Under the pieces are notes generated by a model, which was not told the DNA's origin, ran no database searches, and was given only the letters and a program-made list of their open reading frames with translations. Of a DNA stretch of 64,000 bases, positions 51,973 through 60,139 are shown piece by piece. Origin of the DNA: Yersinia frederiksenii ATCC 33641. GTDB taxonomy: Bacteria > Pseudomonadota > Gammaproteobacteria > Enterobacterales > Enterobacteriaceae. The stretch lies in NCBI RefSeq assembly GCF_000754805.1, contig NZ_KN150731.1:2219886-2283885 (forward strand), in the 5' to 3' direction. The number at the start of each line of letters is the position of its first letter. Position 1 is the first letter of the stretch. Both the position numbers and the translations under genes were made by a program.

Positions 51973-53304
51973 TTAAGGATAGAGCTTATATTTCTCGCGT
52001 AGTTTTAAATAATTATCAATACCGGGCTGCCAGTTAGATTCCAGGTAATTCACTGTTTCATCTATGGATAATTTCCTTTCTGTTGCTTCTTCCATTAATT
52101 TAACCAGATTGCGTGTACCCGTTAATTTAGCGAGCCATAGCGGGCGGATTAAAAAGTACTCCTCCTGATAATCCAGATAATCTGCTTCCTTCTGTGGCGA
52201 GATAACCATTGGATAGCCCGCATCTTTAAATTTGAACCACCATTCGACAAAATAACGTATCGTCGGTTGCATATCGGTCATCTCAGTTGCCGAAAATCTC
52301 TCGCCACAGACCTCTTTACCGGCTTGCGGCCATCCTGTTTTCTGCTGTTTAATATCAACGTCATAGCAGGTATTGATATAAAACTTCTTGGATGGAAACC
52401 CCAATTGTTCAAAAGGATGGTCTGACCCTCGGCCCATATTGACACTGGTGGCTTCAAATATTCCTAAAGAAGGATAAAGATGAATAGCCAGGTCACTGCG
52501 TAAATTTGGAGAAGGTCTTACCGGCAATGAATAAGGTGACTCATGGGTATAATTCCCCATGGCAATAACCGTCAAATCCTTTGGCGGAAACTGATAAGCT
52601 TTGACGCCAACAGCTTTCCAACTGGCATCATCGAAATGTGTTAACCAGCCCTCATTGACTATCATCTGGGCAAATTCTCCCGACGTCAGTCCATGCACCA
52701 TAGGCACAGGATGCATCCCTATACCTGAGATATTCTCTTCTGCAAGAATAGGTCCATAGACATAATTACCGAGTGGGTTAGGCCTGTCGAACACCATAAA
52801 TTGTTTATGGTACTTTTGCAGGCTTTCCAGCATATGATGCATGGATATGGTATAGGTAAAATAGCGGACACCAACATCCTGCAAATCATAAATAACGATA
52901 TCGACATCAGATAATTGAGTCTCGGTCGGATGTGCTCGCACCCGCCCATCTTTATCCCGCCCATACAAAGAAATAATAGGGAGGCCACTCTGCTTATCAA
53001 TATGATTATCATCACCTAGCCCAGCATCTACATTTCCGCGTATACCATGCTCAACGGAAAATAACGTTGTTACAGTAAAATGGAATTTATCCTGCTCAGA
53101 TAACAGTTTGTCGATGGTATGACGCCCTTCTCTGTTAATAGAACTTTGGTTTACCATTAAGCCCACTCGCTTATTTTTAAGCTGCGGCCCATAAACATTT
53201 TCCTGATCGACACCTAAAATAATTTTTTGCGATACTTCAGCATAACTGGCATTGACCATAAAAAATGAATACAGACATAATAATATTTTCAGGAAATATC
53301 TCAT
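51973..53304 (-). CDS. Exported NamZ-like exo-beta-N-acetylmuramidase (DUF1343)
   Basis: 443 aa with a signal peptide (MRYFLKILLCLYSFFMVNAS, cut after SYA). The rest is a DUF1343 protein: LFSVEHGIRGNVDAG (81-95), YDLQDVGVRYFTYTISMHHM (about 139-158), FDRPNPLGN and GRGSDHPFEQLGFP. The founding DUF1343 member, NamZ (YbbC) of B. subtilis, cuts MurNAc from the non-reducing end of peptidoglycan chains (GH171). Here it should act in the periplasm or outside. Last gene of an apparent operon with a porin and an exported NagZ; murQ, murP and murR are close. Function is inferred from family and neighbours. Lower GC than the housekeeping block. Confidence 0.85.
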   Translation of the reverse strand: MRYFLKILLCLYSFFMVNASYAEVSQKIILGVDQENVYGPQLKNKRVGLMVNQSSINREGRHTIDKLLSEQDKFHFTVTTLFSVEHGIRGNVDAGLGDDNHIDKQSGLPIISLYGRDKDGRVRAHPTETQLSDVDIVIYDLQDVGVRYFTYTISMHHMLESLQKYHKQFMVFDRPNPLGNYVYGPILAEENISGIGMHPVPMVHGLTSGEFAQMIVNEGWLTHFDDASWKAVGVKAYQFPPKDLTVIAMGNYTHESPYSLPVRPSPNLRSDLAIHLYPSLGIFEATSVNMGRGSDHPFEQLGFPSKKFYINTCYDVDIKQQKTGWPQAGKEVCGERFSATEMTDMQPTIRYFVEWWFKFKDAGYPMVISPQKEADYLDYQEEYFLIRPLWLAKLTGTRNLVKLMEEATERKLSIDETVNYLESNWQPGIDNYLKLREKYKLYP

Positions 53305-53357
53305 TCCTTATCTCTCACTATTAAATGAATGAATACTCTGATACAACTTACTTGGTA

Positions 53358-54443
53358 TCAGAAGTTATGCCTTAATTCCACTGCCCAGAACCAAAAGTTG
53401 TTGCTGGTCTTATTGTTATTTGTCCATGTTTGCTCTGGACGGTAATAGGTATCTGCAAATATTGAAGTCTGCTTTGTCAGCGGATAGAGTACCTGTAAAC
53501 CATAGCGGCTACGATTTTTTTCCTTATACAGGGTTTCATGATTATTTGAGTCACGGAAACTCTGGGTCCCCTTGACCAGAGCCAAACGTGTATAAGGCAT
53601 AAGTAGCAAGCCACTGTCGAATTTATAACGATAAATACCCCATAAGAAATGCTCTTTGTTATACAGAGTATTAACCAATTGCTCATCAATATATAAATAG
53701 TTTAGCCAGAGTGAATTCTTCTGGTTAAAGGTGAAATTTGCACCCGCAAAATGCTCATTGATTTGGCTCCAGTCTCGTTTATATACACCATAGTTCCCTT
53801 TTGCACGGGCATAATCCAACTTACGGTCGATCAAACGAAATGATAAGCTAGCATTAAAACTCAGGTTTTCTGAGTATTTATAGTATGCCTGTGGCCTAAT
53901 CCAGATCTCATGTCGCTCTTCACCTTTGCGGATATCTCCCTTATATTCTGGTTCAGCTAGGGCTGGATTATTAATTGATGCAAAATGCCAGTTATCATTA
54001 CGATAACCAAAGCGTAATTTTGTATTACCGCTCTTACCATCATAGGTGAAAGGAAAGGTTCTGGTTACTCCTGCCTGCCAACGTGTACGGTCATACTCTG
54101 GATTATTATCCAAATATGTTTTTAAGAACTGAACATCATATAGCCATAGTGATTCATTCTGGTAAATATAGGCACCGACATAAGGCGATGTTGCCATACT
54201 TCCTTTAATAAACTTCCAGCTTTCATCACTGTCTATTTCTTGTTCTGCACCTATATAGGTGTCAAAATTCCACGTTTTTTGTTTTAATTTATCTTGTGCT
54301 ACTTTTTTTTCTTGTTCTATCTGCTGGATTCGTTTATTTAATTTAATAATTTCCTGATCATAATCAGTTTCAAACTCATCTGCAAATACAGGCATGCACA
54401 TCGTTATGGCGCTAAATACCACAAGTCCTTTTACTATATTCAT
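53358..54443 (-). CDS. OmpG-like outer-membrane porin with coiled-coil N terminus
   Basis: 361 aa outer-membrane beta-barrel. Signal peptide cut after VFA (about 21), then a strongly charged helical segment EIIKLNKRIQQIEQEKKVAQ (about 30-55) that reads as a coiled coil, then alternating beta strands ending WAVELRHNF with a C-terminal Phe. Barrel sequence resembles the OmpG / oligosaccharide-specific monomeric porins. It sits between nagZ and namZ with 18- and 53-base gaps, so it is probably the entry channel for the saccharides they handle. Exact family unverified; KdgM-type is the other option. GGAAGG precedes the ATG. Confidence 0.75.
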   Translation of the reverse strand: MNIVKGLVVFSAITMCMPVFADEFETDYDQEIIKLNKRIQQIEQEKKVAQDKLKQKTWNFDTYIGAEQEIDSDESWKFIKGSMATSPYVGAYIYQNESLWLYDVQFLKTYLDNNPEYDRTRWQAGVTRTFPFTYDGKSGNTKLRFGYRNDNWHFASINNPALAEPEYKGDIRKGEERHEIWIRPQAYYKYSENLSFNASLSFRLIDRKLDYARAKGNYGVYKRDWSQINEHFAGANFTFNQKNSLWLNYLYIDEQLVNTLYNKEHFLWGIYRYKFDSGLLLMPYTRLALVKGTQSFRDSNNHETLYKEKNRSRYGLQVLYPLTKQTSIFADTYYRPEQTWTNNNKTSNNFWFWAVELRHNF

Positions 54444-58691: not shown

Positions 58692-58693
58692 CT

Positions 58694-60139
58694 ATGGCGA
58701 AAATAACCGGCTCTACGATAGAACAGATTTTACTCTTCATTGGTGGGAGTAAAAATATCATCGTCTGTGGAAACTGTATGACGAGGCTGCGTCTCACCTT
58801 AAGAGATCGTCAGCTTATACAGCATGAAGACCTGAAGAAAATTCCTGGGGTCATGGGGGTGGTCAATGGCGACGACCAACTGCAAATCATCCTTGGGCCG
58901 GGCAAAGCCCAGACTGCCAGCGAAATGATGAATAAGGTTCTGAGTGCTGAACCACCGCCAGACAGTGCTGATGATGTTGACCTGCAAGTGCTGGCAAGCC
59001 AAACAAAACAGCAGATGAAAGCGAAACAGAAGAGTGCCGTTCATAATTTTCTGACCAAATTTGCCACCATTTTTACCCCGCTTATTCCGGGCTTCATTGC
59101 CGCAGGGTTACTGCTGGGGATAGCGACGCTGCTTCAGCAAACCCTGATATTAGAAGGTGTAACGCCATCCTCGTGGTTAGTGGGACTGATTGCTTACATG
59201 AAAGTGTTCAGCATCGGTTTATTTACTTTCCTGAGTATCCTAATCGGTTTTAATACCCAGAAAGCCTTTGGCGGGACCGGAGTCAACGGCGCGATTATTG
59301 CGTCGTTATTTATTTTACGCTACGTGCCAGAGGGGACCGTCGGCTATTACGCCGGGATGGACAACTTCTTCGGCCTAGTCATTGATCCGCGTGGCAATAT
59401 TATTGGCGTGCTGTTGGCCTGTATGGCGGGTGCATGGATTGAACGGCAAGTACGGCGTTTTATTCCTGATAATCTGGATATGATCCTAACATCGACAATC
59501 ACTTTGCTGATTACAGGTGCAATGACCTTTGTGGTTATTATGCCTTTGGGTGGCGAACTGTTTAAGGGCATGTCTTGGCTATTTATGCATTTGAATGGTA
59601 ACCCTTTCGGCACCGCAATTCTGGCAGGGTTGTTCCTAATTGCCGTGGTATTCGGTATCCATCAAGGATTTGTTCCGGTCTATTTTGCTTTAATGGATGC
59701 GCAAGGATTTAACTCATTATTCCCTATTCTGGCGATGGCGGGTGCCGGTCAAGTAGGGGCTGCACTGGCACTTTATGCGCGCTCGCCCAAAGGCTCTGTC
59801 CTGCGCACGCAAATTAAAGGTGCCATCTTCCCTGGGCTATTGGGGATTGGCGAGCCACTTATCTATGGTGTGACGTTACCGCGCTTGAAGCCCTTTATTA
59901 CCGCCTGTGTGGGTGGAGCGGTCGGTGGCTTCTTTATTGGGCTTGTCGCTTGGCTGGGGCTTCCGGTTGGCCTGAATACGGTATTTGGTCCATCAGGTTT
60001 AGTGTCGATTCCGCTGATGACATCAGCACAGGGGATCTTTGCCGGGATGCTGGTTTATATCGCCGGCCTGCTGATTTCGTATATCGCTGGCTTTATTCTG
60101 ACCTGGTTTTTTGGGCATAAAAATATCGATTTAAGCTAA
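58694..60139 (+). CDS. murP: PTS N-acetylmuramic acid transporter EIIBC
   Basis: Brings MurNAc across the inner membrane with phosphorylation to MurNAc-6-P; needs the glucose EIIA. 481 aa. N-terminal EIIB domain with phosphorylated Cys28 in CGNCMTRLRLTL, linker (about 90-120), then EIIC with about ten membrane segments and the GEPLIYGVTLPRLKPF loop. No EIIA domain, as in E. coli MurP. Directly behind murQ. Confidence 0.95.
   Translation: MAKITGSTIEQILLFIGGSKNIIVCGNCMTRLRLTLRDRQLIQHEDLKKIPGVMGVVNGDDQLQIILGPGKAQTASEMMNKVLSAEPPPDSADDVDLQVLASQTKQQMKAKQKSAVHNFLTKFATIFTPLIPGFIAAGLLLGIATLLQQTLILEGVTPSSWLVGLIAYMKVFSIGLFTFLSILIGFNTQKAFGGTGVNGAIIASLFILRYVPEGTVGYYAGMDNFFGLVIDPRGNIIGVLLACMAGAWIERQVRRFIPDNLDMILTSTITLLITGAMTFVVIMPLGGELFKGMSWLFMHLNGNPFGTAILAGLFLIAVVFGIHQGFVPVYFALMDAQGFNSLFPILAMAGAGQVGAALALYARSPKGSVLRTQIKGAIFPGLLGIGEPLIYGVTLPRLKPFITACVGGAVGGFFIGLVAWLGLPVGLNTVFGPSGLVSIPLMTSAQGIFAGMLVYIAGLLISYIAGFILTWFFGHKNIDLS

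What the first reader, a model, noticed from the sequence alone, without database searches (positions are those of the whole stretch)
51973..60139. Complete peptidoglycan/MurNAc scavenging cluster with exported NamZ, exported NagZ and a porin
Seen: namZ-like (DUF1343) and long GH3 nagZ-like genes, both with export signals, in one unit with an OmpG-like barrel, next to murR / murQ-murP. Known: in B. subtilis NagZ, AmiE and NamZ break down peptidoglycan outside the cell and MurP/MurQ use the MurNAc; E. coli has only murQP-murR plus an unrelated YfeW. Inferred: this Yersinia has a Gram-negative version where the porin admits peptidoglycan saccharides, NagZ and NamZ strip GlcNAc and MurNAc in turn, and MurP takes up MurNAc. 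No amidase is in the cluster, so peptides must be removed by another enzyme or the substrate is already peptide-free.
Basis: partly seen in the sequence, partly recalled or inferred. Interest (0 to 1): 0.85.

Follow-up and report, generated by a model that had tools for sequence, protein, structure and literature searches.

The report
Cell-wall sugar scavenging genes with porin
A block of six genes in this bacterium looks like a kit for bringing in and digesting pieces of bacterial cell wall as food, including an outer-membrane pore for which I found no published link to this job.

Summary
Window 51973-60139 encodes intact NamZ, an outer-membrane barrel, an exported two-domain GH3 NagZ, an RpiR-family regulator (MurR by position), MurQ and MurP. 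The order nagZ-porin-namZ holds in 28 of 28 triads counted (15 Yersinia, other Enterobacterales, two Providencia plasmids); murR-murQ-murP adjoin in 20. The porin is predicted as a 14-strand barrel nearest CymA and OmpG. A second exported-NagZ type sits beside a true Pfam OmpG porin and murR in five genomes. A CRP-like site lies upstream of nagZ in 23 of 40 sequences; a palindrome, GGAAT-N5/6-ATTCC, is strongly enriched at these promoters but its strict form occurs in only 14 of 40, so shared MurR control is likely, not shown. Best reading: a periplasmic pathway for peptidoglycan sugars from outside. The general kind is known (B. subtilis NagZ-AmiE-NamZ; Tannerella ampG-ybbC-murTKQ); porin plus exported NagZ, NamZ and phosphotransferase MurNAc import is a new variant. 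Function, substrate and porin specificity are inferred.

The parts
51973..53304 (-). namZ: exported exo-beta-N-acetylmuramidase (DUF1343/NamZ), 443 aa
   Evidence: Pfam NamZ_N 3.7e-63, NamZ_C 1.4e-12; PDB 4jja 2.4e-61; E85-H86-G87, D173-R174-P175-N176-P177, H204-G205 and E210 identical in 30 of 30 NamZ aligned
53358..54443 (-). outer-membrane porin, 361 aa: signal peptide (by eye), helix 28-54, 14-strand barrel 59-359
54462..56333 (-). exported two-domain GH3 beta-N-acetylglucosaminidase (NagZ/YbbD type), 623 aa
   Evidence: PDB 3bmx 6.4e-110 over residues 33-621; D233/H235 and D317 identical in 26 of 26 aligned
56391..56406 (-). CRP-like site TGTGATAATTATCACT upstream of nagZ
   Evidence: read; CRP-like site upstream of nagZ in 23 of 40 sequences, all 15 Yersinia among them
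56436..56451 (.). operator-like palindrome GGAATAATAATATTCC (minus-strand reading), putative MurR site
   Evidence: strict form 15 times in 25,364 bp upstream of nagZ/murR/murQ against 1 in 660,789 bp elsewhere; strict at nagZ in 11 of 40, relaxed in 16 of 40
56695..57555 (-). murR: RpiR-family regulator, 286 aa
   Evidence: Pfam HTH_6 + SIS; NCBIfam MurR model 246.3 bits, below its cut-off of 408
57710..57725 (+). CRP-like site CGTGATAAACATCACG upstream of murQ (one base short of the strict pattern)
   Evidence: read; strict CRP-like pattern at murQ in 9 of 24 sequences, not the window
57783..58691 (+). murQ: MurNAc-6-phosphate etherase, 302 aa
   Evidence: TIGR00274 437.9 bits, cut-off 302
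58694..60139 (+). murP: MurNAc-specific PTS EIIBC, 481 aa
   Evidence: NF007152 848.1 bits, cut-off 516
51753..51829 (+). tRNA-Met at the border of the cluster; the 3' side is a variable, insertion-prone site in the genus

Best explanation
The six genes form one regulated pathway for feeding on peptidoglycan sugars from outside the cell. The barrel lets short cell-wall saccharides through the outer membrane. In the periplasm the exported NagZ removes GlcNAc and NamZ removes MurNAc from the non-reducing ends, in turn; peptides are removed by an AmiD-type lipoprotein amidase encoded elsewhere (or the glycans arrive without peptides). MurP imports and phosphorylates MurNAc, MurQ converts MurNAc-6-P to GlcNAc-6-P, and the MurR-like regulator (relieved by MurNAc-6-P in E. 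coli, recalled) together with CRP switches on both the murQ-murP and the nagZ-porin-namZ promoters. Shown here: gene content, conservation of order, conserved residues of the enzymes, barrel fold (model), promoter motifs, a lipoprotein amidase and a separate short NagZ in the same genome. Inferred: enzymatic activity, substrate of the porin, MurR and CRP binding, and growth benefit.
For: Family and structure matches. Porin between nagZ and namZ in 28 of 28 triads counted; 20 linked to murR-murQ-murP, 7 not linked in the stretch seen, 1 at a contig end. In the genus namZ occurs in 15 of 25 genomes and murP in 16 of 25, the 15 all within the 16 (Fisher 4.9e-6, not corrected for kinship). The 14 of 14 non-Yersinia genomes of the family sample with an exported NagZ of 50% identity or more also have MurP. 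A second exported-NagZ type pairs with a Pfam OmpG porin and murR in five genomes. NamZ sits beside murQ in 22 of 30 loci from the wider order. CRP-like site upstream of nagZ in 23 of 40 sequences; palindrome enriched. AmiD-type lipoprotein, AmpD-size amidase, AnmK and short NagZ in the own genome.
Against: No activity, binding or growth data. Of 21 rows with exported NagZ of 50% identity or more in the family sample, 6 show neither mur genes nor namZ in the fetched stretch (L142-L146, L149), 4 are triads away from mur genes, and 2 have murR without murQ-murP. MurP base rate in genomes without exported NagZ was not measured outside the genus. The porin model is of middling confidence and the porin has no direct significant BLAST match to OmpG-type porins (E 0.015 at best). 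The strict palindrome is absent from 26 of 40 sequences, and the relaxed one from 24 of 40 at nagZ and 19 of 24 at murQ, the window's murQ side included. The regulator fails NCBIfam's MurR cut-off. The triad is absent in 10 of 25 genus genomes.
Confidence: 0.8

Rival explanations
1. The cluster recycles the cell's own wall: the exported NagZ and NamZ trim self-derived glycan fragments in the periplasm and MurP recovers the MurNAc; the porin is incidental.
For: MurP/MurQ also serve recycling in E. coli (recalled); the genome has the usual recycling set, AmpD-size amidase, AnmK and short NagZ.
Against: The porin is present in 28 of 28 triads and a different porin accompanies the second exported NagZ type, which own-wall recycling does not need. 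Own turnover in Gram-negatives yields mostly anhydro-muropeptides handled by AmpG and cytoplasmic enzymes (established knowledge).
Confidence: 0.12
2. The GH3 enzyme and porin serve chitin or other GlcNAc-containing saccharides, and sit near mur genes because GlcNAc-6-P metabolism is shared.
For: GH3 beta-N-acetylglucosaminidases often accept chito-oligosaccharides (established knowledge); 6 of 21 exported-NagZ rows have neither mur genes nor namZ nearby; the VhChiP chitoporin is among the structural matches.
Against: NamZ accompanies this porin in 28 of 28 cases and has no use on chitin; the closest solved relative is the B. subtilis NagZ; promoter motifs shared with murR/murQ in part of the sequences.
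Confidence: 0.06
3. The barrel is an adhesin, protease or other outer-membrane protein rather than a sugar pore.
For: No Pfam or solved relative by sequence; function of a barrel cannot be read from fold.
Against: Best structural matches are the channels CymA and OmpG; profile link to Pfam OmpG porins at 94.5%, E 7.6e-8, on shallow alignments; operon position.
Confidence: 0.07

Closest known systems
Bacillus subtilis nagZ-amiE-namZ with murR-murQ-murP (recalled; the founding NamZ paper, Muller 2021, is not held)
   Same: Two-domain exported NagZ, NamZ, MurQ, MurP, MurR-type regulator
   Different: Gram-positive; has an amidase (AmiE) in the operon and no outer membrane or porin
Tannerella forsythia ampG-ybbC-murTKQ operon and NamZ1/NamZ2 (PMC5388701, PMC10465942, PMC7670621; passages seen)
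   Same: Gram-negative; ybbC (recalled as the old name of namZ) co-transcribed with MurNAc uptake and murQ; periplasmic N-acetylmuramidases reported
   Different: Uses AmpG and MurT/MurK instead of a PTS MurP; regulated by GppX; no NagZ or porin named in the operon's figure legend
Escherichia coli murR-murQ-murP-yfeW
   Same: Same regulator/etherase/PTS core, divergent arrangement
   Different: No namZ, exported nagZ or porin there; 3,901 bases of the triad have no match in 20,395 E. coli records
CymA (Klebsiella oxytoca cyclodextrin porin) and OmpG
   Same: Predicted 14-strand barrel with the best structural scores to both; CymA is a saccharide channel (abstract start)
   Different: 10-16% identity in structural alignments; this protein has an N-terminal helix (28-54) outside the alignments
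murQ-namZ loci of other, unnamed families of the order (L155-L174)
   Same: NamZ beside murQ, often murR and a GH3 NagZ
   Different: In the two annotated by Pfam (L158, L163): sodium:solute symporter plus BadF-type kinase in place of MurP, NagZ with a lipoprotein-like start, no triad porin

Membership tests
NamZ (exo-beta-N-acetylmuramidase) | NamZ_N and NamZ_C Pfam domains over cut-off | tested here: met
   213 and 49 bits, cut-offs 26.9 and 25
NamZ (exo-beta-N-acetylmuramidase) | Conserved acidic residues | tested here: met
   E85, D140, D143, D173, E210, E218 identical in 30 of 30; which of them is catalytic was not established here
NamZ (exo-beta-N-acetylmuramidase) | Release of MurNAc from non-reducing ends | not testable with these tools
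   needs enzyme assay
GH3 NagZ, B. subtilis YbbD type | GH3 N-terminal domain plus C-terminal domain, full-length alignment | tested here: met
   residues 33-621 on 3bmx 32-635, 6.4e-110
GH3 NagZ, B. subtilis YbbD type | Asp/His dyad and nucleophile Asp (roles recalled) | tested here: met
   D233, H235, D317 identical in 26 of 26; D317 aligns with the position that reads Asp in 3bmx and Asn in 4gyj and 3lk6
Porin_OmpG (PF09381) | Match over the Pfam cut-off | tested here: not met
   no OmpG match listed for any of 14 members at E up to 10 or of 9 at E up to 1
Porin_OmpG (PF09381) | 14-strand barrel fold | tested here: met
CymA | Barrel fold | tested here: met
MurNAc PTS (MurP) | NCBIfam equivalog cut-off | tested here: met
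   848.1 bits, cut-off 516
MurR | NCBIfam equivalog cut-off | tested here: not met
   246.3 bits, cut-off 408; filed as RpiR-family, MurR by position only
MurR | Binding to the murQ operator, relieved by MurNAc-6-P | not testable with these tools
   needs binding assay

The most novel reading that the evidence does not exclude
Enterobacterales own a dedicated outer-membrane porin family for peptidoglycan saccharides, working with periplasmic NagZ and NamZ under MurR/CRP control; the triad moves as a module (it is also on plasmids without mur genes), and a second, OmpG-family porin was recruited to the same job beside another exported NagZ and murR, which would give OmpG-type porins a physiological substrate.
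Probability: 0.5. Interest if true: 0.68.

Novelty: new variant of a known kind. Interest (0 to 1): 0.52.

Why it matters
E. coli-type bacteria are known to use outside MurNAc as the free sugar through MurP. A porin plus periplasmic exo-glycosidases would let Gram-negative gut and soil bacteria feed on larger cell-wall debris, tie predation, lysozyme and gut turnover to their nutrition, and give a defined substrate class to OmpG/CymA-type channels. The fixed gene order and the promoter motifs make this directly testable.

Tried and rejected
Considered and set aside: chance clustering (28 of 28 triads keep the order); a single-genome oddity (15 of 25 genus genomes); a missing amidase as a gap in the pathway (AmiD-type lipoprotein found); a bona fide Pfam OmpG member (not met); presence in E. 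coli (3,901 bases of the triad, no match in 20,395 records). Two weak porin matches (29% over residues 222-361, G710 and G764) showed none of the window's genes in their short flanks and were not counted as triads. That the window's copy is itself a recent tRNA-borne island was not shown: the tRNA-Met 3' end has no second close copy in the own genome (best other 79%).

Literature: searches for NamZ + muramidase (0 papers), DUF1343, N-acetylmuramidase/NagZ/MurNAc/exo-lytic, Yersinia + N-acetylmuramic acid + murQ, NamZ whole word (of which 20 were listed), MurR + N-acetylmuramic acid + operator (15 listed), CymA, exo-beta-N-acetylmuramidase, NamZ1/NamZ2/GH171 (15 listed) and OmpG + porin + peptidoglycan + N-acetylmuramic acid: I saw no title or abstract on this gene set in Enterobacterales; I opened passages of four papers only. 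The library lacks most subscription journals, so this is no proof that none exists. The MurR operator of E. coli could not be checked against a paper; only the K-12 sequence was read (two ATGATTCC copies upstream of murQ).

Limits: the CRP pattern was scanned on one strand only; one search repeated it on both strands upstream of nagZ and murQ. The palindrome was noticed in these same loci before it was counted, and the sequences are related. Searches used 40 sequences; duplicates of the same contig and 19 of the 20 loci L155-L174 (all but L157) were left out. The porin alignment A1 used the window and 13 of the 15 named loci: L113 was left out because its porin match lies in two frames, L109 for no reason of substance. 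The hhalign comparison used 9 and 3 sequences. Base rate of MurP among family genomes without exported NagZ was not measured. Signal peptides and lipoprotein signals were judged by eye or a simple pattern.
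Full report
What is there. Window 51973-60139 holds six intact genes: namZ, a barrel, a long GH3 gene and murR on the minus strand, and murQ-murP on the plus strand. Pfam and NCBIfam confirm NamZ, GH3, RpiR/SIS, MurQ and MurP. The GH3 protein aligns over residues 33-621 with B. subtilis NagZ/YbbD (3bmx, 6.4e-110), including the C-terminal part that the short NagZ of 346 aa elsewhere in this genome lacks. 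D233, H235 and D317 are identical in 26 of 26 relatives, and NamZ keeps E85, D140, D143, D173, E210 and E218 in 30 of 30. D317 aligns with the position that is Asp in 3bmx and Asn in 4gyj and 3lk6. The MurR call rests on family and position: it scores 246.3 bits against NCBIfam's cut-off of 408.

Conservation. In the genus, namZ occurs in 15 of 25 genomes and murP in 16 of 25; all 15 lie within the 16. All 15 have the porin and nagZ beside namZ. In 13 of the 15 murR-murQ-murP adjoin; in one (L107, with 7.1 kb upstream of nagZ in view) they do not; in one (L109/L133) the contig ends there. The exception, G400 (L134), has murP and a murQ reduced to fragments beside a tRNA-Phe, and none of the triad genes there or, for namZ, in the genome.

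Outside Yersinia the porin scan of named genomes returned Serratia sp. H1w, Kosakonia oryziphila, Rahnella bruchi, Pectobacterium versatile KC01, Klebsiella sp. BIGb0407, an uncultured Cedecea and a further uncultured genome, 7 of 15 loci, the other 8 being Yersinia. In the family sample the porin is found in 12 of 392 genomes, 10 strongly. Counting each genome or plasmid once there are 28 triads: 15 Yersinia; five others linked to murR-murQ-murP (L111, L114, L135, L136, L137); two of a second family with the blocks rearranged (L150, L151); four with the triad apart from mur genes (L138-L141); and two on Providencia plasmids with no mur genes within 12 kb. The order nagZ-porin-namZ holds in 28 of 28. 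In L113/L131 (Y. massiliensis) the porin match lies in two frames, so that copy may be broken or misassembled.

A second version. Three of the four genomes with an unlinked triad (G731, G507, G673) also have a second type of exported nagZ (about 50% identity); two further genomes (G619, G739) have that type without the triad. In all five it is followed by a different porin and then murR (L147, L148, L152-L154); murQ-murP follow in three of the five. That porin passes Pfam OmpG (2e-21 for L152, the one of the five that was scanned). L157, from another family, has murR/murQ-murP-nagZ-OmpG porin-namZ (porin 2e-17). L146 also has the OmpG-type porin beside nagZ, without mur genes in the stretch. 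Exported NagZ next to an OmpG-like porin and mur genes is therefore seen with two porin clades. Against a strict tie: of 21 family rows with nagZ of 50% identity or more, 9 adjoin murR-murQ-murP, 2 adjoin murR alone, 4 are triads away from mur genes, and 6 (L142-L146, L149) show neither mur genes nor namZ in the fetched stretch. All 14 of the 14 non-Yersinia genomes behind these rows have MurP somewhere (in G597 with one stop inside, in G711 matched from residue 56). The base rate was not measured.

Regulation. Upstream of nagZ the window has GGAATAATAATATTCC at 56436-56451 and TGTGATAATTATCACT at 56391-56406. The murQ side has a near-CRP site CGTGATAAACATCACG at 57710-57725. The CRP-like pattern lies within 350 bp upstream of nagZ in 23 of 40 sequences, all 15 Yersinia, the five other linked triads and L138-L140 among them, and upstream of murQ in 9 of 24. 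The strict palindrome occurs 15 times, in 14 of 40 sequences, in 25,364 bp upstream of nagZ, murR or murQ and once in 660,789 bp elsewhere; 0.12 were expected in Markov-generated sequence for the 64 nagZ/murQ windows, where 14 were seen. It is found at nagZ in three Yersinia (window, L120, L121), between murR and murQ in L137, at murQ in L150/L151, at nagZ in three of the four unlinked triads (L138-L140, with a second strict or relaxed copy in each), and at the second nagZ type in L147, L148 and L152-L154. But it is missing even in relaxed form upstream of nagZ in 24 of 40 and upstream of murQ in 19 of 24, the window among the latter; in most Yersinia the nagZ site is an imperfect remnant such as AAATGTTATTATTCCTT, and L141 and the two Providencia copies have half-sites at most. 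The sequences are related, so the counts are not independent events. E. coli K-12 has two ATGATTCC copies in its murR-murQ gap. I read this as one MurR/CRP regulon; CRP is the better-supported half.

The rest of the pathway. The own genome has a short NagZ, AnmK, and three Amidase_2 proteins: one of AmpD size (186 aa), one with a lipoprotein signal (LLLLLAGCSSS), and one without.

Origin. namZ, porin, nagZ and murR have GC 0.38-0.42 against 0.49-0.50 for murQ, murP and rpoD. In the window and five other Yersinia a whole tRNA-Met lies beside the namZ end, in G403 a tRNA-Phe. In four more (G258, G396, G410, G411) only the last 46-47 bases of tRNA-Met are there, which looks like the far attachment site of an element inserted between tRNA and cluster; G408, which lacks the cluster, has such a partial copy 4.9 kb from its whole tRNA-Met around IS-like genes. 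In the 10 genomes without namZ, and in G403, none of the window's cluster, glsA or gad genes was found after tRNA-Met in the stretch fetched (about 10 kb; about 0.65 kb in L191), and homology stops 3-49 bases past the tRNA. The site is thus an insertion hotspot, and the plasmid copies show that the triad can move without mur genes; how the cluster itself came here is not shown.

Wider context. NamZ_N is found in 35 of 394 genomes of the order. Of the 30 loci returned (L002-L031), 22 have murQ within the 1.5 kb flanks. Two such loci scanned by Pfam (L158, L163) have a sodium:solute symporter and a BadF-type kinase in place of MurP; L161 looks alike by eye. NamZ with murQ is thus a general theme in this order; the PTS-plus-porin arrangement is a variant of it.

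Known or new. B. subtilis is the model for extracellular NagZ and NamZ (recalled; supported by passages in PMC13204101 and PMC10936207). T. forsythia has ybbC in an ampG-murTKQ operon (PMC5388701, passages) and periplasmic N-acetylmuramidases, for which NamZ1/NamZ2 are cited (PMC10465942, passages). I found no paper on the porin-containing set in the searches listed under Tried and rejected. I file it as a new variant of a known kind, interest 0.52. Enzyme activity, porin specificity and regulation remain to be shown.

Noticed in passing
window 60218-63986: glsA, gadC and a gadB-like gene follow murP here and in several other Yersinia copies of the cluster, and were not found after tRNA-Met in the stretches fetched from 10 genomes without the cluster (one stretch only 0.65 kb); they may share the same variable site.
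   Followed up: partly
L120, L123, L128, L133 beside namZ: Only the last 46-47 bases of tRNA-Met are present beside the cluster in four Yersinia, like an attachment site left by an inserted element.
   Followed up: partly
L193 1259-6257: G408 has a second copy of the tRNA-Met 3' end (44 bases perfect) about 4.9 kb downstream, enclosing IS-like genes.
   Followed up: partly
L187 974-10342: After tRNA-Met, G398 carries island-type genes (a RadC-like and a YfjP-like GTPase by eye) instead of the cluster.
   Followed up: no
L134 8393-8862: G400 has a fragmentary murQ with an intact murP beside tRNA-Phe and no triad: a decayed remnant.
   Followed up: partly
L113 9001-10082 / L131: The Y. massiliensis porin match lies in two reading frames; broken gene or assembly error.
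   Followed up: no
L183, L184: Two Providencia plasmids with traI carry the triad near fimbrial genes and an lpxL-like gene.
   Followed up: partly
window 33477-33662: FMN riboswitch, 108.4 bits.
   Followed up: no
G474, G659, G673, G731: These genomes have two MurP-like genes.
   Followed up: no
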